Of a DNA stretch of 37,602 nucleotides, positions 6,077 to 16,559 are shown one piece after another. Position 1 is the first letter of the stretch, and the number at the start of each line of letters is the position of its first letter. Source of the stretch: Candidatus Gastranaerophilales bacterium Zag_111 (lineage in GTDB: Bacteria > Cyanobacteriota > Vampirovibrionia > Gastranaerophilales > Gastranaerophilaceae); the NCBI GenBank assembly GCA_001899395.1, contig MOYD01000062.1, positions 140,033 through 177,634 of the forward strand, in the 5' to 3' direction. Below the pieces are notes generated by a model. The model worked only from the letters and a program-made list of their open reading frames with translations, searched no databases and had not been told where the DNA came from. A program made the position numbers and the translations under genes.

Positions 6077-6108
6077 AAATCACTTGAGAATTAATGTATA
6101 ATAGGCAT

Positions 6109-6717
6109 ATGGATAATGTTATATATACAATTGGATATTCAACATATAATATTGAAGAATTCATCAGAGAATTAAATAAAATTGATAAATTGTGCCTTAT
6201 TGATGTTCGTTCTTATCCATTTTCCGAGCATTTTAGTGAATATTCTAAAAATAATTTAGAACCTCATTTGCACAGAAACAATATTCTTTATAGAAATTAT
6301 AAAGATGAATTTGGAGCAAGACAAGAAGATAATAAATATTATGAAAAATATGGATATCTTGATTTTGAGGAATTTATAAAATCAGATATTTTTCAATCTG
6401 GGGTTCAAAAATTACTAGAAGGGAAAAAACTGGATTACAATTTTATTCTTTTATGTGCAGAAAAAGACCCTATCAATTGTCATAGAGCAATAATGGTAGG
6501 TAGAGGACTTGAATTAGCGGGATTTAAAATTCACCATATAATAAAAGATAGTAATATTCAAACTCAAAAAGAAATAGAGGACAGACTGCTAAATATGTAT
6601 TTCCCAAATAGAGAACAACTAAGTCTTTTTGAACAAAAAACAAAAGATGAATATGTTACGGAAGCGTACAGATTACAAAATGCAAAAATTGGCTACAAGA
6701 AAGAAAGGGTTGCATAA
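6109..6717 (+). CDS. DUF488 family protein 1
   Basis: 202 residues from the ATG at 6109. An in-frame ATG at 6094 exists, but it sits against a TATAAT hexamer (6097-6102), a good -10, and the family begins at the MDNVIYTIGYS strand. DUF488 hallmarks: N-terminal YTIGYS, then CLIDVRSYPFSEHF, and near the C-terminus LLCAEKDPINCHRAIMVG, the conserved CxExxxxxCHR motif suggestive of a cysteine/histidine active or metal site. The biochemical role of DUF488 is not established as far as I know. No Shine-Dalgarno is visible, and the -10 lies only 6 bases before the start, which suggests a leaderless mRNA. It overlaps the next gene by one base (TAATG). Three-gene cassette with a second DUF488 and a dual-OB protein. 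Confidence 0.85.
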   Translation: MDNVIYTIGYSTYNIEEFIRELNKIDKLCLIDVRSYPFSEHFSEYSKNNLEPHLHRNNILYRNYKDEFGARQEDNKYYEKYGYLDFEEFIKSDIFQSGVQKLLEGKKLDYNFILLCAEKDPINCHRAIMVGRGLELAGFKIHHIIKDSNIQTQKEIEDRLLNMYFPNREQLSLFEQKTKDEYVTEAYRLQNAKIGYKKERVA

Positions 6718-7157
6718 TGAATATTTATACTATAGGTTTTACAAAAAAGGATGCTGAGACATTTTTCAATATACTCATAAAGAATAAAATTGAATGCCTT
6801 ATAGATATTCGCCTTAACAATGTTTCTCAATTGGCTGGTTTTACAAAAGCTGCTGATTTAAAATATTTTTTAAAACAAATAGCTAATATTGATTATATTC
6901 ATAATACAAATTATGCTCCGACAAAAGATATTCTTGACAATTATAAGAAAAACAAAATAACTTGGGAAGAATATGAAAATCTATATTTAAAATTAATAGA
7001 AAAAAGAAAAATAGAAAATATATTTCTCAAAGATGCCATGAAATATACTAATGTATGCCTGTTATGCTCAGAACCAACAGCTCAAAATTGTCATAGGCGC
7101 TTGCTTGCAGAATATCTGAAAAATAGCATTGAAAATTTAACGGTAAGGAATTTATAA
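6717..7157 (+). CDS. DUF488 family protein 2 (short)
   Basis: 146 residues, a second DUF488 protein: IYTIGFTKKDAETFF at the start, CLIDIRLNNVSQLAGFTKAADL in the middle, and VCLLCSEPTAQNCHRRLLAEYL at the end, keeping the CxExxxxxCHR signature. It is shorter than its upstream neighbour and not close in sequence, so this is not a recent tandem duplication. It starts in the upstream stop codon and the dual-OB gene begins at the very next base after its stop, so the three are translated as one unit. Two different DUF488 proteins side by side suggests a heteromer or successive steps on one substrate (inference). Confidence 0.85.
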   Translation: MNIYTIGFTKKDAETFFNILIKNKIECLIDIRLNNVSQLAGFTKAADLKYFLKQIANIDYIHNTNYAPTKDILDNYKKNKITWEEYENLYLKLIEKRKIENIFLKDAMKYTNVCLLCSEPTAQNCHRRLLAEYLKNSIENLTVRNL

Positions 7158-7811
7158 ATGCAAAATGAAATAAAGTTTATTATATTAACAAAATCGGCAA
7201 GACATGGCGGAAATTGTGTAGTAGGGATAAATATTGATAACGAAGAGATAATTAGGTTAGTTTCAAACAATGATAAGATTAAAGGTTCTTTATCCGATGA
7301 TAATATGAAATACCCAAACGGAGAAATCGCACAACCATTAGACATTGTGCAATTAAAGCTAGTAAAACACTTACCTGAAATTTATCAACCTGAAAATTAT
7401 CTATTAGACGAAACATATCAATGGAAAAAAATCAAAAATGCAACCTTTCAAGATATCTTACCTTATATATCAGATGAAAATGATATTTTTGACAATAATA
7501 TACCATTTTTAACAGATACAAATATAAACAATACAAAAAAATCAATCATGGTTATAAGAGTAAAAAATGTAAAATTATATCAATATTGCAGCCTTTATGA
7601 TATGGGAAATATTAAGCCTAAAACAAAAATTGACTTTTTATACAAATCAAAACCTTACGAAAAATTTTCAGTTACGGATAGAGATTATTTTGGGGAAAAT
7701 TGTGAATTCACAGATGCAATATTAGTTGTTACACTTCCAGCGAAACCATATCATGATTACTATTATAAATTTGTTTCCAAAATATTACCACTTAAAAAAG
7801 TTGAAAAATAA
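7158..7811 (+). CDS. Dual OB-domain-like protein
   Basis: 217 residues. The opening FIILTKSARHGGNCVVGINI followed by a beta-rich body (EEIIRLVSN, GEIAQPLDIVQLKLV) and the later 'CEFTDAILVVTLPAKPYHDYYYKFVSKILP' ending match my memory of the 'dual OB-containing domain' family found beside DUF488 genes; this is recalled rather than searched. OB folds commonly bind nucleic acid or oligosaccharide, so this is the likely recognition partner of the two DUF488 proteins. No membrane segment or signal peptide. It starts one base after the previous stop and ends at a strong hairpin that separates it from tRNA-Gln. Confidence 0.65.
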   Translation: MQNEIKFIILTKSARHGGNCVVGINIDNEEIIRLVSNNDKIKGSLSDDNMKYPNGEIAQPLDIVQLKLVKHLPEIYQPENYLLDETYQWKKIKNATFQDILPYISDENDIFDNNIPFLTDTNINNTKKSIMVIRVKNVKLYQYCSLYDMGNIKPKTKIDFLYKSKPYEKFSVTDRDYFGENCEFTDAILVVTLPAKPYHDYYYKFVSKILPLKKVEK

Positions 7812-7976: not shown

Positions 7977-7984
7977 TTATTTTG
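7977..7984. repeat. Target-site duplication, left copy (TTATTTTG)
   Basis: 8-bp direct repeat identical to 16202-16209, directly abutting the left inverted repeat. Eight bases is the duplication length expected for IS1595-family insertions. Confidence 0.9.
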
Positions 7985-8026
7985 GGCACTTATATACTAA
8001 ATTCCACTAAATAGGTTAAAACGGTT
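7985..8026 (+). repeat. Left terminal inverted repeat (42 bp)
   Basis: Begins GGCACTTATATACTAAATTC and ends GGTTAAAACGGTT. It matches the reverse complement of 16160-16201 except at positions 3 (C/G) and 39 (G/A). Confidence 0.93.
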
Positions 8027-8034
8027 AACAATGC

Positions 8035-8523
8035 TTAACAATCGTTGTTTTCGTCCTTAGAGTGATAAATTTTTCTAATAGTTTTTGCAAAATCAGACAA
8101 GGAATCATCTCTGTTCTCAGAGATTTCTTTGCTGAAATCTTTTACTTCTTCATTAAAATACTCTGCATATTTTTTCTTAAAATCTTCGTTAGAATCAGAA
8201 GTGTTGTAAATTGTATAAAAAATATCAATAGTATTTTCTAAAAGTTTTTTTAATTCTTTCTTATTATTAGTTTCATATTTATCTTCACTAAGGTATAAAC
8301 AATCTTCTGATAATCTGTCAAAAAGAAAATATTTTGTAACTGCATCAATAAAATTTTCTTTTTGGCTCAATGTTTCTGTACTATATACTACACCATAAAT
8401 TTGAAATACATCACGATAAAATTCTTCACATTTGTCTAACTCTGCAATTATATTTACTAAATCTCGACCACATATTTTATGCAGCCCTCGCTTGATTTCG
8501 ATTATATCGTGTATATTCTGCAT
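8035..8523 (-). CDS. Unknown protein overlapping the transposase gene
   Basis: 162 residues, acidic and mostly helical, no motif I recognise. It overlaps the 3' end of the transposase gene by 47 bp in another frame and finishes 8 bp inside the left inverted repeat, so it belongs to the transposon. It is probably translated from the transposase transcript. Its position between transposase and element end suggests an accessory transposition protein or a small cargo gene; neither can be decided from the sequence. The long overlap and lack of a clear ribosome-binding site lower confidence in the exact start. Confidence 0.6.
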   Translation of the reverse strand: MQNIHDIIEIKRGLHKICGRDLVNIIAELDKCEEFYRDVFQIYGVVYSTETLSQKENFIDAVTKYFLFDRLSEDCLYLSEDKYETNNKKELKKLLENTIDIFYTIYNTSDSNEDFKKKYAEYFNEEVKDFSKEISENRDDSLSDFAKTIRKIYHSKDENNDC

Positions 8524-9583
8524 CTCTTATTTGTCTCCAGGTAATTTTGGTATCTTGTATATTTTGTAAGAACCAGGTACATGCATCTGCTGAATTCTTC
8601 ATGTCTCTTGTATTATACCTGAAACATACTTCATTTGTATAATTTTGTATATGTTTGCGGGAAATCTTAATATGAGAGTTCTCTACTCGTTTCAATCCCG
8701 ACCAACCATTTTCCATTGTGTTGGTATAAATGTTTTTATTGTCCTTATTTACATAATTTCCTTTGCTATGGACAACAACCCCATGATTATAAATTGGTGG
8801 TAGTTTTTGATAACTTGGATTGTCATCAGTATATAAGTTTGAACCAGGTTGAACATATCTAAGCACTCCAGCATTTAATGTACTATCTGATACATTTGGA
8901 ATTACTCGGATAACTAAATTCCCACCTCTTTGTACAAAACCTTGAAGTAATTTTTTATTTTGATTAGGAATTTCTTTTACTTTCAATTTTTCTTTGAGGT
9001 GCATATTCTTAAGCAAACCACCAGCATGATATTCATCTACCTCTACAGTCCCGCTTAGTTCTTGATGATTTTCTTTACCCATAGCATTTCTTATTTTCTG
9101 TAAAATATGCCAGGCTGTTCTGTATGTAAACCCATACTCTCTTACAAGCATACTGGCTGGTAAGCCACGCTTATCTGAATGTTCTCGGAAAATTATTTCA
9201 AACCAGATTGGTAAAGGGATTTTTGTACTGTGAAATAGAGTACCAGTAAGTACATTAAATTCCTTACCAGTATTTTTGCATTTGTACCAACCATCTTTAC
9301 ATTTATAAACTTGAGAAGTTATATCATAAGGACTTTCTGGTTCACCCCTCCAAATAAGTTCTTCTAAGAATTCTATGCAGTCTTCATTTGTCTTGAAGAT
9401 TTCCCTCAAGGTTTTAAGATTTTTAAATTTTTTGTACAGAGCTTCCTTTATATTCATATGTATACTTATATAAAGTTCATGATTAGGGTTAAAATTGACT
9501 TTTTGAAGGAGATTGTTAAATTTTTTGTTAATATTCTTACGAAAAGATAAGGCAGAGTTATAGCTTAAATCAGCTATTTTCAT
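8477..9583 (-). CDS. ISXO2-like transposase, IS1595 family
   Basis: 368 residues if the ATG at 9583 is used; the frame stays open to a TTG at 9682, but that lies in the loop of the leader terminator, so a start further in is more likely (a GTG at 9619 and ATG at 9457 are alternatives). Hallmarks in order: helical N-terminal LREIFKTNEDCIEFLEELIW, a zinc-ribbon-like YKCKDGWYKCKNTGKEF, the signature TGTLFHSTKIPLPIWFEII, then the catalytic acidic residues in TVEVDEYHAGG (D183), LYTDDNPSY (D253) and NTMENGWSGLKR (E291). It catalyses cut/paste or copy-type transposition of the surrounding 8.2-kb element. Only one of the usual four zinc-ribbon cysteines of the family remains in place, which I recall as normal for a gut Bacteroidetes-type subgroup. 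Expression appears to be governed by the riboswitch-like leader. Confidence 0.9.
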   Translation of the reverse strand: MKIADLSYNSALSFRKNINKKFNNLLQKVNFNPNHELYISIHMNIKEALYKKFKNLKTLREIFKTNEDCIEFLEELIWRGEPESPYDITSQVYKCKDGWYKCKNTGKEFNVLTGTLFHSTKIPLPIWFEIIFREHSDKRGLPASMLVREYGFTYRTAWHILQKIRNAMGKENHQELSGTVEVDEYHAGGLLKNMHLKEKLKVKEIPNQNKKLLQGFVQRGGNLVIRVIPNVSDSTLNAGVLRYVQPGSNLYTDDNPSYQKLPPIYNHGVVVHSKGNYVNKDNKNIYTNTMENGWSGLKRVENSHIKISRKHIQNYTNEVCFRYNTRDMKNSADACTWFLQNIQDTKITWRQIRDAEYTRYNRNQARAA

Positions 9584-9668
9584 ATGATATGCAGTTTTTG
9601 TGTTTTTACGTTGAATCACTCTGCTGCTTCCATTACGTAGTACTAACCCCATAAAAAGAAGCAATAGA

Positions 9669-9693
9669 AAAACCCATCGCAACGATGGGTTTT
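9669..9693 (-). terminator. Intrinsic terminator in transposase leader
   Basis: On the minus strand: perfect 11-bp stem AAAACCCATCG / CGATGGGTTTT with a TTG loop, followed by a U-run (TTTTTC). It sits between the aptamer-like RNA and the transposase coding region. Its 5' strand can alternatively pair with an upstream copy of the 3' strand (9723-9733), the hallmark of an attenuator. Confidence 0.85.
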
Positions 9694-9733
9694 AATCAAA
9701 AACTTTTTTAATTAAACTTATTAACCCATCGTT
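9681..9733 (-). promoter_or_regulatory. Antiterminator pairing alternative to the leader terminator
   Basis: Minus-strand AACGATGGGTT (9733-9723) can pair over 11 bp with AACCCATCGTT (9691-9681). The second strand is the same one needed by the terminator hairpin, so the two structures exclude each other. The upstream strand also contains ATGGGT, which is the likely 3' half of the aptamer's P1 stem. Confidence 0.75.
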
Positions 9734-9809
9734 CAAGCATTAGCACCTTGCATTTCTGTAGGTTGCTGTGTGGTCATAGGGCTTGTCCCTCGCACAACTC
9801 TTTATAGGT
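9724..9809 (-). ncRNA. SAM-I-clan riboswitch-like aptamer (variant)
   Basis: The minus-strand RNA carries the conserved core of the SAM-I/SAM-IV clan in order: AAGAG, GAGGGA, GCCC, ATGA, GCAACC and AAGGTGCTAA, with spacing close to the SAM-I consensus. Candidate P1 is ACCTAT (9809-9804) with ATGGGT (9729-9724); P2a is TGTG with CACA; P2b is GGG with CCC; P3 is ACCT with AGGT. The P2 loop CAAGC can pair with GCTTG just after the GCTAA segment, a possible pseudoknot. No clear P4 hairpin is present, so this is a variant. P1 uses the same bases as the antiterminator, so ligand binding should favour the terminator and turn the transposase off. Ligand identity is inferred from motif match only. Confidence 0.75.
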
Positions 9810-9827
9810 ATTTATTTGTATAAATCT

Positions 9828-9856
9828 ATTTTACACCCACACCCCGAAATCGTCAA
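9828..9856 (-). promoter_or_regulatory. Promoter of the riboswitch-transposase transcript
   Basis: Minus-strand TTGACG (9856-9851), exact 17-bp spacer, TAAAAT (9833-9828). Predicted start near 9821, about 12 bases before the aptamer's P1 strand, which fits a dedicated leader RNA rather than read-through from the XRE gene. Confidence 0.8.
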
Positions 9857-9878
9857 CTTTGTCAGAGGATGGTGGGCA

Positions 9879-10235
9879 TTATTTAGATTTCTTATTCATC
9901 AGACGTGAAGCCAGTTTTAAGGCATCGTAATAGTTTTCTATTTCTCTATCATTAGTTGCAGCTTGAAGTATTTTTAGTGATTTTTGATAAGCAGAGTGAT
10001 TTGCAGGAAAGGAATCAAATTGGACAGGTTTATAACTATCCATGTCGGATAATTCAAAATCAAGAACTTCGGATAATTTCTTCAATGTTTTGTATGTCGG
10101 TTCATGAATTCCATTTTCTATTTTTGACAAATGCTTATCGTCAATATCTGCAAGTTCTGCAAGATGTTGTTGTGTAAAACCTTTTGCTTTACGAAGTTCT
10201 TTAATTTTCTTACCTAGTTCATTTTCTGCGTTCAT
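9879..10235 (-). CDS. XRE-family regulator in transposon
   Basis: 118 residues. A Cro/C1-type helix-turn-helix occupies about residues 5-65: LGKKIKELRKAKGFTQQHLAELADIDDKHLSKIENGIHEPTYKTLKKLSEVLDFELSD, with recognition helix near DDKHLSKIENG. The C-terminal 50 residues are helical and unassigned, possibly for dimerisation. The gene is divergent from the zinc-ribbon membrane protein operon (intergenic 10236-10402) and lies upstream of the riboswitch promoter on the same strand. It probably controls cargo expression, the transposase, or itself. Start ATG follows an AAGAAGG-like stretch. Confidence 0.9.
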   Translation of the reverse strand: MNAENELGKKIKELRKAKGFTQQHLAELADIDDKHLSKIENGIHEPTYKTLKKLSEVLDFELSDMDSYKPVQFDSFPANHSAYQKSLKILQAATNDREIENYYDALKLASRLMNKKSK

Positions 10236-10402
10236 GACAACCTTCTTTTATACATCATCTGTTAAATTCACATATAGATACACCGCAATATTAACTAGAT
10301 AACTTTATTAACAATTTGTAAAACTCAACAACTTTTTATCTTTTTGTGTTAAGATGTTTGCAGAATAGAAAAGTGTTCTATGAAGTTGAAAGGGATAAGA
10401 GC

Positions 10403-11497
10403 ATGACAGAAAGAACAAAAAACTGTCCTTTTTGTGGGGAAAAAATTGATGTAATGGCAATTACATGTAAATTTTGTGGTGAAAATATAAAAACAAACCA
10501 ACAAAAAGTCATAAGCATTTACAATAATGTTTTAGAAAAAATCAAAGATTTTAAAATTAAAAAATGTACTTTACTTGTTTTATTAATATTGGTCTTTCTG
10601 TTTATTGGTTCAGTCATTACGTATATAGTCGACAACAAAAGTGTGAATAATGCATTCGGTTCTTTTAACTTAAGTGAAATTGAAGAACCTATAGATGTTA
10701 TTGGGGCAATGTCAACTGATGAAAATATAATGAAAACATACTTAAATGGTATCCACTTACAACAAAATAAGGATAAAATTTTTCAAATGTTTTTAGGTAG
10801 ACTATCAAGTGAAGTTGAAAAATACAATGATTTAATGAATTGGTTTGATTTTTATGATTACTACGAGTATGAATATGAAATATTACAGAGTGGGCATCCA
10901 GCAACTATAAAGAGAATTGAACTTACACCAAAAATAAAAACTAATGAGTACGGGGAAACTATGAAAATTTATCTTACAAGCCCTAAGATGCCATTAATGG
11001 AATATGTATACATAGGAGAAGGTGCTCATCAAACAGTGATAGATTACCGTTATCTAAGTGAAAATTATTCAATGCTATTAGGAAAACCTTTTAAAGAATA
11101 CTTAGCTATTAAAGCGAAAGAGGAAACTGACTTAGATGGCGGTTCTTATTATCAAGATGCTGCGTTAGGAGTTTCTAAAAAATGTTTAGTTGATTGGATA
11201 ATAGCATTACAAAATTTTAGAAAGAAATATCCTAAGTTTGTATCTGATAATATGCAAATAGAACAAGATATTAATACATATACTTCCGATTTAATATCAG
11301 ATTTGTATCAAACATTTGATTTTGGAAACGATAAGATGTATCCAGAATGTAAAAAAGCATATGAAGATTTTTTAAATCGTGCCGACAAAGATACTCCTGA
11401 ATATAAGGTTGTAAAAGAGTGCTATGAAATTTTAAAAAGATATGATTTTAAAAGTAACGATGAATTTTGGAGTATGCTCAAGAGTTATAGAAATTAA
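10403..11497 (+). CDS. Zinc-ribbon single-pass membrane protein 1 (cargo)
   Basis: 364 residues from the ATG at 10403, chosen because AAAGGG lies upstream and the zinc ribbon then starts at residue 8; the frame extends to a GTG at 10346 with no support. Residues 8-25 form a zinc ribbon (C8-P-F-C11-G ... C22-K-F-C25-G). A transmembrane helix spans about 56-76 (LLVLLILVFLFIGSVITYI), and about 285 residues follow, with no known motif, likely outside the cytoplasm. First of three consecutive genes sharing the layout zinc ribbon - membrane helix - variable domain, all inside the transposon. The double-cysteine-pair ribbon resembles 'zinc ribbon domain-containing protein' families that sit at the cytoplasmic face. 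Function unknown. Confidence 0.85.
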   Translation: MTERTKNCPFCGEKIDVMAITCKFCGENIKTNQQKVISIYNNVLEKIKDFKIKKCTLLVLLILVFLFIGSVITYIVDNKSVNNAFGSFNLSEIEEPIDVIGAMSTDENIMKTYLNGIHLQQNKDKIFQMFLGRLSSEVEKYNDLMNWFDFYDYYEYEYEILQSGHPATIKRIELTPKIKTNEYGETMKIYLTSPKMPLMEYVYIGEGAHQTVIDYRYLSENYSMLLGKPFKEYLAIKAKEETDLDGGSYYQDAALGVSKKCLVDWIIALQNFRKKYPKFVSDNMQIEQDINTYTSDLISDLYQTFDFGNDKMYPECKKAYEDFLNRADKDTPEYKVVKECYEILKRYDFKSNDEFWSMLKSYRN

Positions 11498-11532
11498 TAA
11501 TATTAATATAGGAGATTAACATAGTAAAAGAA

Positions 11533-12426
11533 ATGAAAAAATGTCCTTTTTGTGGCAATGAAATTAAAGCAGAAGCTATAAAATGTAGATTTTGCGGTAA
11601 ATTCTTAAACGAAGAAAATCAAGATAACGAAAAAACTAGCGACAAGATTAAGAGTATAAAAGTATTTAAGAAATGCAAATTTTCTTTAAATAAATTTTTA
11701 GACCTAAGTTTTAAAATAGGAAAAGTACTTTCTTCTGTTCTTTTATTTGTAGTTCTTTTCGCAATTTTAGCAGCAAGTTGTGTTTTAATTTTTTCTAATG
11801 GGGGAACATTAAAAACTCCAAAATTTACTGTGTCAAAAGAGAACCAAGTTGTATCAGCACCATCTATAACTTCAAAAGATAGCGAAGAGCAAACTTTACC
11901 TGAGGAATACAAAATAATGATAACAAAGATAATTGAAAAACATACATTGGATTCATCTGTTGGAGAATATATAGAACATTATATTATGCATAATCTTTCT
12001 GAACAATATAAACGGCAATATTTAACGGGATTAGATAAGTATTATACTGATGCTCTTGATTATTATTCCCAAGATAGAAATAGTGTAGCTCGTAATAAAA
12101 TAATCAATGATACACTTGAAGAAATAGAATATTATCCAAGCGATGAAGATTATCAAAATGCTAAGAAAAACATAAAAATTTATGGACGATACAACAAGTA
12201 TTTGTGTGCCGGTATTTTAAAACAATATACTGAGATTTTTGAACAGAATTTACATAATGCAAAAGATAATGAAGCACAAAGCAATCTAACAAGACTAATT
12301 GCTTTAGGTGTTATTGGAGTTGGATTACTTATATTCGTCATTCTTTTATTCTTACCTGTATTAATTGAAATTGAAGAAAATACTAGATTTACAGCACATA
12401 AACAAGATATAGAATTAGCGAAATAG
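11533..12426 (+). CDS. Zinc-ribbon two-pass membrane protein 2 (cargo)
   Basis: 297 residues. Zinc ribbon at residues 4-21 (C4-P-F-C7-G ... C18-R-F-C21-G), nearly the same as in the preceding protein, then helices at about 64-87 and 255-278 with an external helical domain between. The C-terminal tail is short and cytoplasmic. A good GGAG (11511-11514) lies 18 bases before this ATG but only 6 before an in-frame ATA at 11521, so initiation might occur at ATA (adding IVKE) or the spacing is simply poor. It follows gene 1 by 35 bp and precedes gene 3 by 14 bp. No enzyme motif; the shared ribbon suggests the three proteins interact with one another or with a common partner. Confidence 0.85.
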   Translation: MKKCPFCGNEIKAEAIKCRFCGKFLNEENQDNEKTSDKIKSIKVFKKCKFSLNKFLDLSFKIGKVLSSVLLFVVLFAILAASCVLIFSNGGTLKTPKFTVSKENQVVSAPSITSKDSEEQTLPEEYKIMITKIIEKHTLDSSVGEYIEHYIMHNLSEQYKRQYLTGLDKYYTDALDYYSQDRNSVARNKIINDTLEEIEYYPSDEDYQNAKKNIKIYGRYNKYLCAGILKQYTEIFEQNLHNAKDNEAQSNLTRLIALGVIGVGLLIFVILLFLPVLIEIEENTRFTAHKQDIELAK

Positions 12427-12440
12427 ATGGAGAAGATAAA

Positions 12441-13025
12441 ATGTTTAATATATTTTTAAATAAAAGAATTTGTCCGAAATGTCATGAGAAAATCAATAAA
12501 ACAGAGAAGAAGTGTCCTTTCTGTGGAGAAGAACTTGATATAGAAATGAACACTACTTATTTAAATAAAGATACAAATATTATTGTTAAGTGTGTTGTTG
12601 CTTGTGTAATTACTATGTTTTGTTTCTCATTTATAAGTCGTCAGATTCAGATAATGCACTACAAAAGTTTACGAGCACAAATAGAGAAAAAACGGATTAA
12701 CGGAGAATACAAACAAAACTATACAATTGAGGAGGCTGTAACCTCAATAAATAAATTCTGGGAAACAAGTTTTATTGTAAAGAATGTACACAACTATGAT
12801 GTTAAGCTGGAAGATGCAAAAATATCTGATGTAGAAAATTATATAATTGAAAGCCCAGAAAATTATAAAAAAATTGGAGAACATGAATATCAGTGTATCG
12901 AAACAGAATTTACAAAAGGAAATATCTCATTTAAATTTATTTCAAATGAAAGAATCAAATTTACTGACAATACAACTGGAGATGTTGCAATTTACAAATT
13001 TATAGATGGGAAATTAACCAAATAA
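12441..13025 (+). CDS. Zinc-ribbon membrane protein 3 (cargo)
   Basis: 194 residues with GGAGA ahead of the ATG. Ribbon cysteines at 11, 14, 25 and 28 (CPKCHEKIN ... CPFCGEEL), membrane helix at about 48-65 (IIVKCVVACVITMFCFSF), and a 125-residue external domain containing EYQCIETEFTKGNISFKFIS, beta-rich and similar in feel to small secreted binding domains. It ends the operon: its stop codon is followed at once by a strong terminator. Same architecture as the two upstream genes but different outer domain, as if one anchoring and ribbon module had been combined with three different sensors or effectors (inference). Confidence 0.85.
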   Translation: MFNIFLNKRICPKCHEKINKTEKKCPFCGEELDIEMNTTYLNKDTNIIVKCVVACVITMFCFSFISRQIQIMHYKSLRAQIEKKRINGEYKQNYTIEEAVTSINKFWETSFIVKNVHNYDVKLEDAKISDVENYIIESPENYKKIGEHEYQCIETEFTKGNISFKFISNERIKFTDNTTGDVAIYKFIDGKLTK

Positions 13026-13027
13026 AA

Positions 13028-13059
13028 AATAACTCTCTATTATTAGAGAGTTATTTTTT
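13028..13059 (+). terminator. Terminator of zinc-ribbon operon
   Basis: 12-bp stem AATAACTCTCTA / TAGAGAGTTATT with a TTAT loop, followed by TTTT. It directly follows the stop of the third zinc-ribbon gene; A's on the left arm make it work in both directions. Confidence 0.85.
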
Positions 13060-13110
13060 ATCAGCATACTTATAATTCAGTGGTTTAATACTTCTATTAT
13101 AAAAACATCA

Positions 13111-13941
13111 TCAAAACGGAATTTCATCATCAGGTATTAAGTCATATGTTTCATTATTTATGAAAGATTCTTCCTCTTTTAAGATACCATTATATTTTTT
13201 CTCATAAAAACTAATTAGAAAGTTCCCAAGTGTTGCAACACTATTTACAATGAAACAAGCATATAAAGGGTCATCTATTATATATTGAGTACTATCTTTT
13301 CCATGAAATTTAGTTTTTTCACTTCTTAATAATTCTATAGATTGAGCCATATTAAGCAGAGAACTTCCTATTTGCCTAACTCTTTCATCAACATCTTTTG
13401 ATGGAAAGTATCCTAATCCTTTTAAAACTTTTTGAGTAAGATTATAAAGAGTATCTTTTTTATTATAATCTATATCTAATTTTCCTTGTTCAAGAATATG
13501 TTTTATAATACTTTCAAGAGCAGAATTTGCATATCCTATTGCTTCATCAGGTTTATCATAAACTTTTTGAATAGCATCTTCAAAAATGGCTTTTGCTTGG
13601 CGGTAATCGTTTTTATTAAGTCCCTCTATTTTGGCTATAGAATAAATAACACCTGTTACTTCGATTTTTAAATCTATAGCCATTTGAATTATTATCTCGT
13701 CTGACAACTGATTTAAAGTATTTTCTACATCAATCTTGTCTTGATTATCATCTTTATAAATAGGATAAAAATTATAAATAGGTTCAGGTTCACTATATCC
13801 ATATTGTTCATACCTAACAACTTTTTGCCATCTTTTAATGTAACGTTCAACTTTTTTATAAGTTGTATATTTTTTGAATAATGTATCAGATATTTTATCT
13901 ATTAAATCCATTACATAACTATGTGACAAAAGGTTTTCCAT
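13111..13941 (-). CDS. Abortive-infection C-terminal (Abi_C/HEPN-like) protein (cargo)
   Basis: 276 residues from the ATG at 13941, preceded at good spacing by GAGGGG; the frame opens at a TTG at 13956. The C-terminal half fits the Abi_C pattern as I recall it: DEAIGYANSALESIIKHIL, then TLYNLTQKVLKGLGY, then VRQIGSSLLNMAQSIELLR and the ending RSEKTKFHG. That ending is an R-x6-H (R206, H213), like the catalytic motif of HEPN ribonucleases, although Abi_C normally reads RN...HG. The N-terminal 130 residues are unassigned. Abi_C proteins are linked to phage-triggered growth arrest, so a defence role for this cargo gene is plausible. Family call is from memory of the motif; no search was done. 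Confidence 0.7.
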   Translation of the reverse strand: MENLLSHSYVMDLIDKISDTLFKKYTTYKKVERYIKRWQKVVRYEQYGYSEPEPIYNFYPIYKDDNQDKIDVENTLNQLSDEIIIQMAIDLKIEVTGVIYSIAKIEGLNKNDYRQAKAIFEDAIQKVYDKPDEAIGYANSALESIIKHILEQGKLDIDYNKKDTLYNLTQKVLKGLGYFPSKDVDERVRQIGSSLLNMAQSIELLRSEKTKFHGKDSTQYIIDDPLYACFIVNSVATLGNFLISFYEKKYNGILKEEESFINNETYDLIPDDEIPF

Positions 13942-14075
13942 ATTCCATCCCCTCAAAAAGTAATATTTTCTATTATATTAGAGTTTTTAAATTATGATTA
14001 AAAAATTAAGTAAAAATTAATATTTAATAATTTTGTAGAAACCATTTATATTTTCTTGCAGAAAAGGAGATATAC

Positions 14076-14660
14076 ATGGCATTAGAAGATACAATAACAA
14101 ACTTAGGCACAGCAATAATTAATCTGGTAAAGGTTAGGATTACAAAATCGTTTACAGCTTATGATGCAGAACTTGAAGAAACATTATTAGAGCTAAAAGC
14201 TAAAATTGATGAATTGGCAGAAAATAATTCTGGAAATGAAACTTCTCCAGTAGTAACCGAAAACAGCGTTGTTTATGACGAAACCTTAGGCAAAGATAAA
14301 GTAATTCTTACAAAAGAATATCTCAATAAATATATCCCTGATGTAACCTTTACAGAAGATTTGGAAATTTGGGTCATTTCTTCTGGTAAAATGTCTGTAA
14401 ATTTTGGTACAAATGGAGCACACTATAGTGTCAGTGGTCAAGAATCAAATACGGTTGACGAAACTCTTGTAAGTATACCAGATAGCGGAGCATGTTTAAT
14501 ATTTTGGAATAAATCCACTTATAAGGTAGATGTGGTCAATTCCAGCACTTTGACAGATTCAGATAATTGGATTGGATTACTTTTAGTTGATGGATTGGAT
14601 ACCACAGATAGAGAGGGTACTGATTTAGGGGCAGAATCATTAAGTATAGGTGGTTTATGA
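14076..14660 (+). CDS. Unknown cargo protein with phage-structural flavour
   Basis: 194 residues behind a very strong Shine-Dalgarno (AAAGGAGATATAC before ATG), unlike most genes here, so high expression is likely. Residues 1-50 are an amphipathic helix region (ITNLGTAIINLVKVRITK, then a short coiled coil); residues 70-190 are beta-rich, with many T, S, G and D and no cysteine pairs (only one Cys). The look is that of a tail-fibre, baseplate-attached or adhesin-like beta protein, but I recognise no family. No signal peptide. It stands alone, divergent from the Abi_C gene, and is separated from the DUF2130 gene by a bidirectional hairpin. Confidence 0.65.
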   Translation: MALEDTITNLGTAIINLVKVRITKSFTAYDAELEETLLELKAKIDELAENNSGNETSPVVTENSVVYDETLGKDKVILTKEYLNKYIPDVTFTEDLEIWVISSGKMSVNFGTNGAHYSVSGQESNTVDETLVSIPDSGACLIFWNKSTYKVDVVNSSTLTDSDNWIGLLLVDGLDTTDREGTDLGAESLSIGGL

Positions 14661-14680
14661 TACAGAAATAATATATTAAA

Positions 14681-14707
14681 AACTCAGTAGCTCTTTGCTA
14701 CTGAGTT
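14681..14707. terminator. Bidirectional hairpin terminator
   Basis: 10-bp stem AACTCAGTAG / CTACTGAGTT with a 7-base loop between convergent genes. The U-tract (TTTTTAATAT) is on the minus strand, so it mainly terminates the DUF2130 transcript. Confidence 0.7.
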
Positions 14708-14736
14708 AAAAGTTATCATATCAAGGTCTGTATTTA

Positions 14737-16035
14737 CTAACTTACATTTTGTAACTCAGCAAACTTTTCCTGCATAGTGGGATTATTTTTCGTTAACCTC
14801 TTTATTGTCAAATCTTCCGCTTTATTATTTGCTAATCTCAAATTATTCTCCGAAGACAACAATGCATCTTTTGTCTTTTGAAGGTGGTCGATTGTTTTGT
14901 CAATTTCTTCAATCGCTGATTTGAATTTTCTGCTCGCCAGTTCATAATTCTTTGAAAACTTATCTTTAAAGTCATTCATCGCAGCTTCAAAGTTTGAAAC
15001 ATCTATATTCTGAGCCTTAACCAACGCCAATTCTTTCCTGTATTCTAAAGAATTCAACGCAGCATTTCTAAGTAAAGTAATAATCGGAATAAAAAATTGC
15101 GGTCTTATTACGTACATCTTAGGATATTTATGCGAAACATCTACAATACCAGAATTATACAATTCACTTTCAGGCTCTAATAAAGATACTAAAACTGCAT
15201 ACTCACAGTTCTTTTCTCTGCGGTCTTTATCCAGTTCTTTTAGGAAATCTTCATTTTTCTTCTTTGTCGAAGTTGTATCCATCTCGTTTTTCATCTCAAA
15301 CATTATTGATATAAATTCACCGCCTTCAGAATCTTTATCTCTATAGATATAATCGCCTTTACTTCCGTTTTTTGCATCATTATCTTTTTCGAAATAAGCG
15401 TTCTGAAATCCTGTTGCACGTAATCTGTTAAACTCAATTTCACAATGCTGTTCAAGAGTTTCGCCGACCATTTTTGTTGAAAGTTTTGCTTTGAAATCCT
15501 TGTAATGTTCGATTTCTTCATCTTTAAAACGTAATTGGTTTTCATACTGGTCTTTTAAGGCTTGTTCACGGAGTTTAAATTCCTTTTCCGCTAACTCACT
15601 TTCATTAGTAAGTTTCAGAATAAAGTTTTCCTGAGCAGCTAATTTATTGCTCATATCTGCCATAATATTTGCGATTTGAAGGTCTTTATCTTTATTAAAG
15701 TTTTTCAATTTGTTTTGAAGTTCTAAAACTTCTTTATCTTTTACAGCAATAAATTCACCGAGTTTTGCTACAAAAGTTTCTTCTTTGGCTTTAATTTCAG
15801 ATTCTAATTCATTTATTTTTGCATCTTTGTCGTTTAATTCTTTGTTAAACTCTTTTTCAAGTTCAAGTTTTGTTAATTTAATCAAGTTGTTTTTATCGTT
15901 CTCAAACTGAATTTCTCTGTTTTTTAATTCTTTTGAAAATTCTTTGTCTTTAACTTGTTTAACTATTGCAGCATAATGGCTTTCATCTACCTGAAAAATT
16001 TCTCCGCATTTAGGACATTTAATTTCGTTTGTCAT
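14737..16035 (-). CDS. DUF2130 nuclease-like protein (cargo)
   Basis: 432 residues from the ATG at 16035, which has AAAGGA at proper spacing; an upstream in-frame ATG at 16053 has none. Order: a CPKCG knuckle at residues 7-11, a long coiled coil (about 30-190), then the DUF2130 core [28 protein letters not shown] (D228) and FEMKNE (E247, K249), and finally helices with [21 protein letters not shown]. The D...ExK pattern fits a PD-(D/E)xK nuclease fold, to which I recall the family being assigned. It is the last gene before the right end of the transposon. DUF2130 proteins are widespread and often stand alone; role unproven, possibly nucleic acid repair or defence. Confidence 0.85.
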
Positions 16036-16060
16036 TTTTAATTTTCCTTTCATTTTTTAA

Positions 16061-16094
16061 TTCTTAACTCGCAGGTACCTATTTGAGTTAAGAA
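16061..16094. promoter_or_regulatory. Inverted repeat upstream of DUF2130 gene
   Basis: Perfect 10-bp arms TTCTTAACTC / GAGTTAAGAA separated by 14 bp, in the leader or promoter region of the DUF2130 gene, within the transposon. No U-tract follows on either strand, so it looks like an operator or 5'-UTR hairpin, not a terminator. Confidence 0.45.
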
Positions 16095-16159
16095 AATGAA
16101 ATGGAAAAATTTGCTAGGAAACAAAAATGGTGGAAAATAGGGTTAAATAGAGTAGTGAA

Positions 16160-16201
16160 AACTGTTTTAACCTATTTAGTGGAATTTAGTATATAAGTCC
16201 C
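16160..16201 (-). repeat. Right terminal inverted repeat (42 bp)
   Basis: Reverse complement begins GGGACTTATATACTAAATTC; partner of 7985-8026 with two mismatches. Marks the right end of the transposon. Confidence 0.93.
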
Positions 16202-16209
16202 TTATTTTG
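16202..16209. repeat. Target-site duplication, right copy (TTATTTTG)
   Basis: Identical to 7977-7984. Removing 7985-16209 restores an uninterrupted spacer between tRNA-Gln and the next gene. Confidence 0.9.
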
Positions 16210-16226: not shown

Positions 16227-16559
16227 TTAAATATTGGTATTTATACTTGTTTTAGATAATTTTGCAGCCTTTTTAATTTTTATTGCCCGTCGTCTTATTG
16301 GTTGCAGTTCAAACAAATGCCTGGATGCTTTTCCTATACTTCTAAGAAATAGTGTACCAAGCATTGAAGTTATTCCGATATCGGAAACATCCCAATGTGG
16401 CATTCTCAATACTTCCGCTCCGGCAGCCAATCCAGACCAAAAACCTAAATCCATATTACGGTTATATTTTGCCCGAACAGTGTTTTTTGTAAAATATCGA
16501 ATTACTTTTGTTTCAAATTTTGGAGAGATTCTTAACATATTTTTATTAAAAATAAACAT
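16227..16559 (-). CDS. Small basic protein, unknown
   Basis: 110 residues, basic, with a patterned core FETKVIRYFTKNTVRAKYNRNMDLGFWSGLAAGAEVLRMPHWDVSD, followed by a short hydrophobic helix (IGITSMLGTLFLRSI) and a K/R-rich tail. I recognise no family. The opposite strand also carries an open frame of similar length, but this one reads as a balanced protein and lies on the same strand as the adjacent tRNA and XRE gene. No strong ribosome-binding site; a start at the internal ATG 21 bases in is possible. The transposon inserted 18 bp beyond its stop codon. Confidence 0.55.
   Translation of the reverse strand: MFIFNKNMLRISPKFETKVIRYFTKNTVRAKYNRNMDLGFWSGLAAGAEVLRMPHWDVSDIGITSMLGTLFLRSIGKASRHLFELQPIRRRAIKIKKAAKLSKTSINTNI

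What the first reader, a model, noticed from the sequence alone, without database searches (positions are those of the whole stretch)
9669..9856. SAM-I-clan riboswitch-like leader controlling a transposase gene
Between a TTGACG-17-TAAAAT promoter and the ISXO2-like transposase, the minus strand holds the ordered core AAGAG, GAGGGA, GCCC, ATGA, GCAACC, AAGGTGCTAA of the SAM-I clan. It is followed by three copies of one sequence: strand 1 (9733-9723), strand 2 (9693-9681) and strand 3 (9679-9669). Strands 1:2 form an antiterminator (11 bp) and 2:3 a terminator (11 bp plus U-run). Strand 1 also supplies the 3' side of aptamer P1. So ligand should favour termination and hold the transposase off, and low SAM should switch it on. 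Riboswitches of this clan normally sit before methionine or SAM genes; one controlling transposition would couple mobility to methylation or nutrient state. P4 seems absent, so it may be a variant or a new subclass.
Basis: partly seen in the sequence, partly recalled or inferred. Interest (0 to 1): 0.92.

Follow-up and report, generated by a model that had tools for sequence, protein, structure and literature searches.

The report
SAM riboswitch inside a jumping gene
A transposon in a gut bacterium carries, just ahead of its own transposase gene, an RNA switch of the kind that normally senses the methyl donor SAM to control methionine genes, so its jumping is probably tied to the cell's SAM supply.

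Summary
Rfam finds a SAM-I aptamer (RF00162, 55.6 bits, cut-off 44.4) at 9810-9723(-), then an 11-bp antiterminator/terminator pair. P4 is missing; the P2-loop pseudoknot is kept.

The leader is not a host riboswitch hit by an insertion. It lies inside an 8.2-kb IS1595-type cargo transposon (7985-16201) with 38-bp inverted repeats (37 of 38 identical) and an 8-bp target duplication. Nine further elements carry the leader before an IS1595-type transposase; one of these transposases is only 35% identical.

Seven related copies keep the promoter but have lost the aptamer.

New here: a post-terminator segment can pair with the P1 5' arm or with the ribosome-binding site, suggesting a second, translational lock. 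Folding energies alone do not favour its ON state.

The same P4-less subtype occurs in many gut and rumen genomes and in phages. Of 99 genome loci with a first gene, 8 precede a SAM synthetase gene; in the window's family none of 44 does.

SAM binding and switching are inferred, not shown.

The parts
7985..16201 (.). IS1595-type cargo transposon of 8217 bp that contains the riboswitch
   Evidence: Inverted ends and target duplication; end motif TTCCACTAAATAGGTT occurs only at these two places in the genome, up to 2 mismatches
7985..8022 (+). terminal inverted repeat, low end (transposase side)
   Evidence: 37 of 38 bases identical to the other end
16164..16201 (-). terminal inverted repeat, high end
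7977..7984 (.). target-site duplication TTATTTTG, low side
   Evidence: it takes the first G of the GGGC end as duplication, so that the end reads GGCACTT
16202..16209 (.). target-site duplication TTATTTTG, high side
9828..9856 (-). probable promoter TTGACG-17-TAAAAT
   Evidence: Consensus match 10 of 12, not above chance by itself; TTGA of the -35 box is kept in all 14 rows of the leader alignment, the -10 box in most
9723..9810 (-). SAM-I riboswitch aptamer, P4-less
   Evidence: RF00162 55.6 bits, cut-off 44.4
9796..9811 (-). 5' arm of P1 plus J1/2; alternative partner of segment X
9782..9785 (-). P2-loop strand of the pseudoknot (CAAG)
   Evidence: Pairs with 9737-9734; 99.4% of cells paired in 39 sequences
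9734..9737 (-). 3' strand of the pseudoknot (CTTG)
9723..9733 (-). strand 1: holds the 3' side of P1; 5' side of the antiterminator
9681..9693 (-). strand 2: 3' side of antiterminator, 5' side of terminator
9669..9679 (-). strand 3: 3' side of terminator, followed by a U-rich run
9647..9659 (-). segment X: post-terminator segment complementary to the P1 5' arm; with its upstream flank also to the ribosome-binding site
   Evidence: Duplex energies against shuffles; forced folds
9617..9631 (-). ribosome-binding site GGAAGC and GTG start codon
   Evidence: Alignment of related elements
8477..9619 (-). IS1595-family transposase; D195, D265 and E303 kept
   Evidence: PF12762, NF033547; the three columns are invariant in the 27 sequences aligned, window included
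8035..8523 (-). second gene, unknown protein of 162 aa, overlaps the transposase
   Evidence: Follows the transposase in 6 of 9 loci at the clustering threshold, by eye also in L058 and L085, not in L030
9879..10235 (-). cargo: HTH regulator
   Evidence: PF01381
13111..13956 (-). cargo: protein with abortive-infection C-terminal domain
   Evidence: PF14355 2.9e-11
14737..16053 (-). cargo: DUF2130 protein at the far end of the element
   Evidence: PF09903 2e-92

Best explanation
A P4-less SAM-I riboswitch is a built-in part of an IS1595-family cargo transposon and controls its transposase. When SAM is plentiful, the aptamer closes P1; strand 2 is then free to form the terminator with strand 3, and transcription stops before the transposase. 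If polymerase reads through, the P1 5' arm is occupied, so segment X can cover the ribosome-binding site and translation is blocked too. When SAM is scarce, strand 1 pairs with strand 2 (antiterminator), the freed P1 arm pairs with X, the ribosome-binding site is released from X, and transposase is made. Shown: aptamer class, terminator geometry, transposon ends, linkage in other elements, complementarity of X to both partners. Inferred: SAM as ligand, direction of the switch, the translational lock, and that transposition follows transposase level.
For: RF00162 above its cut-off over the full model. GCAACC and GGTGCTA, which hold SAM contacts as I recall them from solved SAM-I structures, are invariant in 39 aptamers aligned, though GGTGCTA and AGAG also served to anchor the rows. 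P1 has changes on both sides in 4 of its 6 pairs (covariation score reached by 0 of 500 shuffles). Terminator and antiterminator share strand 2. Exact 8-bp duplications in the 4 elements whose two ends were both read: window, L081, L083, L085. Homology between most pairs of elements begins within about 80 bases before the riboswitch and runs to the right end, while most cargo differs. Ten distinct transposase-linked leaders in all. Forcing the aptamer gives the terminator and an X:RBS hairpin together.
Against: No binding or expression data. Without ligand the predicted minimum-energy read-through fold (-61.6) still pairs X with the RBS; the arm:X fold is 1.9 kcal/mol weaker (-59.7), and in it 5 of the 6 RBS letters are paired elsewhere in a local hairpin, so a translational ON state is not shown. 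Within the 9 transposase leaders arm:X has no double-sided change and X:RBS 2, no better than shuffles (169 of 500). In the aptamer count the number of pair types is no better than shuffles (309 of 500), a slide by -2 gives as many double-changed cells (30), and one P2a pair fails in 22 of 39. Seven related copies have lost the aptamer and some of these look recently spread. No empty site was found.
Confidence: 0.78

Rival explanations
1. Incidental: a transposon landed behind a host riboswitch that used to control a methionine gene, the reading that PMC9943018 (section on transposases read) proposes for antisense riboswitches next to transposases.
For: That paper shows such a case. The window is the only SAM-I site found in its assembly.
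Against: The riboswitch lies between the inverted repeats; it keeps its place in elements at different sites with different cargo; none of the 44 sites read in the family precedes metK (by eye and by clustering).
Confidence: 0.03
2. Relic: the aptamer is decaying and no longer switches; the hairpin acts as a constitutive attenuator of the transposase.
For: Seven related copies have only an AGCAACC remnant behind the same promoter (Rfam negative in the four scanned). P2a pairing is uneven.
Against: In the intact leaders core letters are kept while the chromosomal transposases are 61-70% identical to the window's; P1 covaries.
Confidence: 0.1
3. Another ligand: the P4-less subtype senses a SAM relative (for instance SAH) or has altered specificity.
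For: P4 is missing, and most associated genes are unlike those of classical SAM-I.
Against: Core letters unchanged; the same subtype precedes SAM-synthetase-like genes in 8 of 99 genome loci with a first gene (Pfam for 3 of them).
Confidence: 0.07
4. The arm/X inverted repeat is the edge of a small mobile cassette that carries the riboswitch from gene to gene, and not a regulatory pairing.
For: Leaders with the same layout stand before several unrelated gene families; in L030 the leader is 86% identical to that of L086 over 182 bases while its transposase is only 35% identical to the window's.
Against: X matches the own RBS better than RBSs of other gene families on average (-11.9 against -8.6 kcal/mol, 39 loci), but it beats 95% of them in only 14 of 39 and fails in the MEQQ family. 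Duplications around such a cassette were not looked for.
Confidence: 0.1

Closest known systems
SAM-I (S-box) riboswitch, RF00162
   Same: Core sequence, P1-P2-P3, P2-loop pseudoknot, terminator/antiterminator platform
   Different: No P4; controls a transposase; lies within a transposon; extra segment X that can reach the RBS
Translational SAM-I of Xanthomonas campestris (PMC7270179, passages seen)
   Same: A SAM-I leader that can sequester the Shine-Dalgarno sequence
   Different: That one has no intrinsic terminator and controls the met operon; here terminator and anti-RBS segment follow each other
SAM-IV and SAM-I/IV riboswitches (PMC6890682 and PMC2864571, passages seen)
   Same: Share the clan core; SAM-IV also lacks P4
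   Different: SAM-IV has P5 and a second pseudoknot; SAM-I/IV lacks the P2 internal loop and PK-1 but has P4. RF00162 is the clan's best match here
IS1595-type mobile elements MTnSag1 and tISCpe8 (PMC5704250, passages seen)
   Same: Larger elements that encode an IS1595-family DDE transposase; tISCpe8 is a resistance element by the title of a cited paper
   Different: No riboswitch is mentioned in the passages seen
Laboratory transposases under a synthetic riboswitch (PMC8767425, PMC11925237; search listing only)
   Same: A riboswitch controlling a transposase
   Different: As far as the listing tells, engineered for mutagenesis; here natural and within the element
Dam-methylation control of IS10 and Tn5 transposases (recalled, no call)
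   Same: Transposase expression tied to methylation state
   Different: There the sensor is hemimethylated promoter DNA; here the methyl donor would be sensed by RNA

Membership tests
SAM-I riboswitch (RF00162) | Covariance-model score over the curated cut-off | tested here: met
   55.6 bits against 44.4
SAM-I riboswitch (RF00162) | Conserved core letters of the SAM pocket | tested here: met
   GCAACC, GGTGC and AGAG present in the window and invariant in 39 aptamers; GGTGCTA and AGAG also anchored the rows; their role is recalled from structures
SAM-I riboswitch (RF00162) | P4 helix | tested here: not met
   Gap in the model alignment. Two of the 39 relatives aligned, L054 and L059, have a short hairpin there. 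The score stands without P4, so I call the window's leader a P4-less variant of SAM-I, not a typical member
SAM-I riboswitch (RF00162) | Pseudoknot between P2 loop and J3/4 | tested here: met
   4 pairs, 99.4% of cells paired, one pair with changes on both sides in 2 of 39
SAM-I riboswitch (RF00162) | Binds SAM, discriminates against SAH | not testable with these tools
   needs in-line probing
SAM-IV riboswitch (RF00634) | Best-scoring model of the clan | tested here: not met
   RF00162 is the match shown; of overlapping clan matches only the best is kept, so the score of RF00634 was not seen
SAM-IV riboswitch (RF00634) | P5 and second pseudoknot | not tested
   The terminator region follows P1; no search for P5 was made
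SAM-I/IV variant (RF01725) | No internal loop in P2 (PMC2864571, passage seen) | tested here: not met
   P2a and P2b are separated by an internal loop in the model alignment
IS1595-family transposon | IS1595 transposase domain over the curated cut-off | tested here: met
   NF033547 137.7 bits against 75
IS1595-family transposon | Catalytic D, D, E (assignment recalled) | tested here: met
   Invariant in the 27 sequences aligned
IS1595-family transposon | Short inverted repeats and 8-bp target duplication (family value recalled) | tested here: met
   4 of 4 elements whose two ends were read, of 9 loci
IS1595-family transposon | Transposition activity | not testable with these tools
   Inferred from different insertion sites only

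The most novel reading that the evidence does not exclude
A P4-less SAM-I riboswitch module has become a sensor carried by mobile DNA in gut microbes: cargo transposons, integrase elements and phages use it to couple transposition and accessory genes, among them elements with abortive-infection or DNA-methylase cargo, to a fall in SAM, with a terminator and an RBS lock worked by one P1 arm. A SAM fall could signal starvation or an attack that consumes SAM.
Probability: 0.4. Interest if true: 0.92.

Novelty: new variant of a known kind. Interest (0 to 1): 0.82.

Why it matters
Riboswitches are known as regulators of the metabolism of their ligand. A riboswitch that is an inherited part of a transposon would make a metabolite the direct control of DNA mobility. 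Because elements with intact and with decayed aptamers exist in related bacteria, whether metabolite sensing restrains a mobile element becomes directly testable. The wide P4-less subtype before accessory genes, including in phages, also opens the question of why mobile DNA would read the methyl donor.

Tried and rejected
Empty site: the neighbour gene 16227-16559 was sought in 46 genomes of the genus; 10 have it, the window's own included. Six of the nine other loci were scanned for tRNAs: in the two closest (L252, L253) the next RNA gene is tRNA-Ser, not the tRNA-Gln of the window, and four had none, so no empty site was shown. Viral contigs with the window transposase: none of 22 pattern matches was a relative; that search also missed L030, so it does not reach distant relatives. 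Plasmids: no match to the leader. Another riboswitch class in the aptamer-less copies: Rfam at E up to 0.5 found none in the four scanned, and the leader of L230 folds no better than shuffles (135 of 200 as low). Defence annotation of the transposase or the second gene: none in PADLOC. A claim that the MEQQ-type riboswitch also drives the Mu-like transposase next to it in L066 and L069 was dropped: a hairpin without U-run lies between the genes. Whether L030 is truly viral is open: I recognised no phage structural gene in the 13 kb held, by eye only.

Rows dropped. Of 47 loci read, L094 (broken) and L095 (no recognised partner) were left out; one search failed on L094. In one search, 6 of 45 loci were left out (3 of type E, L054, L064, L082). 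In one search five loci (type E, L054, L082) and duplicates were left out (35 distinct of 45). A1 holds 39 of the 45 aptamers. Of the 117 genome stretches, 18 gave no first gene; first genes are mechanical picks (longest ORF within 260 bases) and a few are surely wrong. An earlier count on the 80 stretches listed gave 64 first genes; the Pfam scan covers those 64.

Papers: PMC9943018 passages and section 21; PMC7270179, PMC6890682, PMC2864571, PMC11092175 and PMC5704250 passages; all others search listing only. That no natural riboswitch-controlled transposon is in print rests, in an open-access library only, and most listed papers were not opened.

Full report
WHAT IS THERE. A scan of the window against all Rfam families gives two matches over the cut-offs: a tRNA at 7922-7850(-) and the SAM riboswitch RF00162 at 9810-9723(-), 55.6 bits (cut-off 44.4), E 2.3e-10, whole model, with the P4 columns gapped. 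It is the only RF00162 match in the 2.2-Mb assembly, which has a SAM synthetase gene elsewhere. The leader folds 4.1 standard deviations below shuffles; the terminator is one of 6 terminator-like sites in the region against 0.7 expected. The promoter consensus is not above chance, but its -35 TTGA is kept in all 14 leaders aligned.

THE GENE. The downstream protein is an IS1595-family transposase (PF12762 4.6e-30; NF033547 137.7 bits against a cut-off of 75), single copy in the genome. D195, D265 and E303 are invariant in the 27 sequences aligned. Related leaders put the start at GTG 9619 behind GGAAGC. A second gene, 8035-8523, matches no family over a cut-off; it follows the transposase in 6 of 9 loci at the clustering threshold and by eye in L058 and L085.

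THE ELEMENT. Comparing nine loci with a riboswitch-linked transposase shows a DUF2130 block at the left, variable cargo, and a promoter-riboswitch-transposase-second gene block at the right. Homology of most pairs begins within about 80 bases before the riboswitch; the window and L086 also share the HTH gene before it, and L030 departs inside the transposase. The ends are inverted repeats: 7985-8022 and 16164-16201 share 37 of 38 bases and are flanked by TTATTTTG on both sides. L085, L083 and L081 have exact 8-bp duplications too (AAATTAAA, TTTTTGGA, GATTTTTC). In the other five loci both ends were not read; some lie on short contigs, and the end motif was not found in L030. In the own genome the end motif occurs only at these two places. 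Cargo: in the window an Abi_C protein, zinc-ribbon proteins below or near cut-off, an HTH protein and DUF2130; in L081 a C5 DNA methylase and a Vsr endonuclease; in L085 a protein with T5orf172 and ResIII domains; in L093 a weak MmeI methylase match below cut-off. So the riboswitch is inside the transposon and belongs to its mobility block.

HOW OFTEN. In the family of the window and one genome of another family 45 loci were fetched and read: 42 over the Rfam cut-off and 3 below (L093, L094, L095). By downstream gene, from clustering and by eye: zinc-ribbon ~140-aa gene 18, MEQQ gene 9, IS1595 transposase 8, N-formylglutamate-amidohydrolase-like 4, small gene plus HTH gene of integrase elements 3, another small gene 1; L094 is broken and L095 has no recognised partner. 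None is metK. Among the 21 loci of the first relatives search metK follows in 7, and probably in L022, where the contig ends inside it; all eight are in other families. Two viral contigs add one MEQQ and one transposase case (L029, L030), and L175 a tenth distinct transposase case. L030 has the leader (54.5 bits) before a transposase only 35% identical to the window's, which falls outside the main clade in a tree where long branches may mislead.

DENOMINATOR. Of 383 genomes of the order, 36 have a relative of the transposase. Eighteen have one with at least 53% identity. Of these 7 have the riboswitch (G000, G343, G269, G222, G299, G128, G213; that of G299 is below the Rfam cut-off). Seven keep the promoter and an AGCAACC remnant but no aptamer (G265, G350, G214, G393, G118, G207, G136, the last with stops in the gene; Rfam negative for the four scanned, L225, L230, L231, L234). 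In G190 the match starts inside the gene and its leader was not seen; G158, G108 and G198 are broken copies without it. Of the relatives at 45% or less, the seven read (L242, L024, L243-L246, L025) show no riboswitch motif upstream; the rest were not read. The copies with a remnant fall into two groups that are 97-100% identical across genera (with L238, leader unseen) and a broken one at 82-87%; they do not form one clade in the tree. Riboswitch copies are at most 75.6% identical to each other except one pair across two genera at 97.7%. This fits the idea that the switch restrains spread, but the numbers are small, and identical copies in draft genomes may include misbinning.

SECOND LOCK. 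Just behind the terminator lies a segment, X, complementary to the P1 5' arm. In 45 loci the best arm:X duplex is reached by 3 of 300 shuffles or fewer in 33 and by 4-10 in six more, the window among these (4); it is absent in the three integrase-type loci and weak or absent in L054, L064 and L082. In 35 distinct combinations several arm positions show changes on both sides (13 at one position, 8 at the next), though these follow gene families and are few independent events. In the 9 transposase leaders alone arm:X is 97% paired, with one-sided changes only, and no better than shuffles. X with its upstream flank also pairs with the ribosome-binding site: 39 loci, mean -11.9 kcal/mol with the own site, -8.6 with sites of other gene families, -7.3 with shuffled sites; 23 of 39 beat shuffles at 5%, 14 of 39 beat 95% of foreign sites; the 9 transposase loci are at 16 of 300 or better, and the MEQQ family fails. 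The column count for X:RBS is inconclusive. L073-L075 have arm and X but no terminator by eye, which would suit a purely translational switch. Forcing the aptamer in the window leader yields terminator plus X:RBS hairpin; forcing arm:X yields the antiterminator and takes X off the RBS, but 5 of 6 RBS letters then pair in a local hairpin, and the ligand-free minimum keeps X:RBS and is 1.9 kcal/mol better. The translational lock is therefore a proposal.

WIDER SUBTYPE. The core pattern was found in 117 stretches of named genomes, where the scan stopped at its limit; titles name Gastranaerophilales, Clostridia, Elusimicrobia, Alphaproteobacteria, Spirochaetia and others, mostly gut or rumen draft genomes, so misbinning of single contigs is possible. 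In 112 of the 116 that could be examined no more than 6 bases separate the pseudoknot strand from P1, which leaves no room for P4. Of 99 loci with a first gene, 21 cluster with a ~100-aa gene (F), 12 with the zinc-ribbon gene, 8 with the MEQQ gene, 8 are SAM-synthetase-like, 3 N-formylglutamate-amidohydrolase-like and 3 the IS1595 transposase (L142 and L190 repeat L085 and L092); the rest are small clusters and singletons. Seven viral contigs (L217-L223) and the complete Ruminococcus phage NatCom_28274 (PV036439.1) carry the riboswitch over the cut-off (8 of 8, 59.9-63.9 bits); in 7 of these 8 the next gene falls in the F cluster. L220 has a terminase, L217 a baseplate J protein and L219 a serine recombinase nearby; in the phage record the leader lies between terminase and DNA-methyltransferase genes. 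The three integrase-type loci have a phage-integrase-family gene 5-7 kb upstream (PF00589).

MECHANISM AND JUDGEMENT. Most likely the transposase is off when SAM is plentiful and on when it falls. Membership: a SAM-I riboswitch by score, core and pseudoknot, lacking P4, hence a variant; SAM-IV and SAM-I/IV are disfavoured. One paper treats antisense riboswitches next to transposases as random insertions (PMC9943018); the inverted repeats speak against that here. No report of a natural riboswitch that is part of a transposon turned up; synthetic riboswitch control of a transposase is listed. The window's family is tied to Candidatus Gastranaerophilales by contigs of identical length: G222 C25 and CANQML010000025.1 (22769 bases), G153 C6 and CANQAV010000006.1 (88010), and in the window's own genus G025 C63 and CAMHMW010000063.1 (9635, named Melainabacteria).

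Noticed in passing
L225, L226, L227, L229, L230, L231, L234: Related elements keep the promoter but have lost the aptamer; near-identical copies occur in several genera.
   Followed up: partly
L261 9001-9471 (PV036439.1) and L217-L223: Phages carry the same SAM-I subtype, mostly before a ~100-aa gene of unknown function, in the phage record on the opposite strand to most of its neighbours.
   Followed up: partly
L055, L057, L082, L087, L089 and window 14737-16053: DUF2130 genes stand at the left end of the transposon and also behind the zinc-ribbon gene that follows the riboswitch in other loci.
   Followed up: no
L070, L071, L091: Elements with a phage-integrase-family gene have the riboswitch before a ~70-aa gene (excisionase-like by eye, no Pfam match for the one scanned) and an HTH gene; they lack segment X.
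   Followed up: partly
L066 and L069, about 700-760 bases after the riboswitch: A hairpin without U-run, with differing but paired letters in the two loci, lies between the MEQQ gene and a Mu-like transposase gene.
   Followed up: no
L120, L121, L127, L184, L188, L195, L214, L216: Clostridial or gut loci where the P4-less subtype precedes a SAM-synthetase-like gene; a natural control for ligand identity.
   Followed up: partly
L053, L056, L065, L076, L123, L136, L173: N-formylglutamate-amidohydrolase-like genes follow the riboswitch in more than one phylum by record title, with a good X:RBS match in the four tested (L053, L056, L065, L076).
   Followed up: partly
L054 and L059: Two zinc-ribbon-type leaders keep a short P4-like hairpin and the GCCTG version of the pseudoknot strand.
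   Followed up: partly
window 6094-7811: Two DUF488 genes and a dual-OB-domain gene stand next to the tRNA at 7922-7850, just outside the transposon.
   Followed up: no
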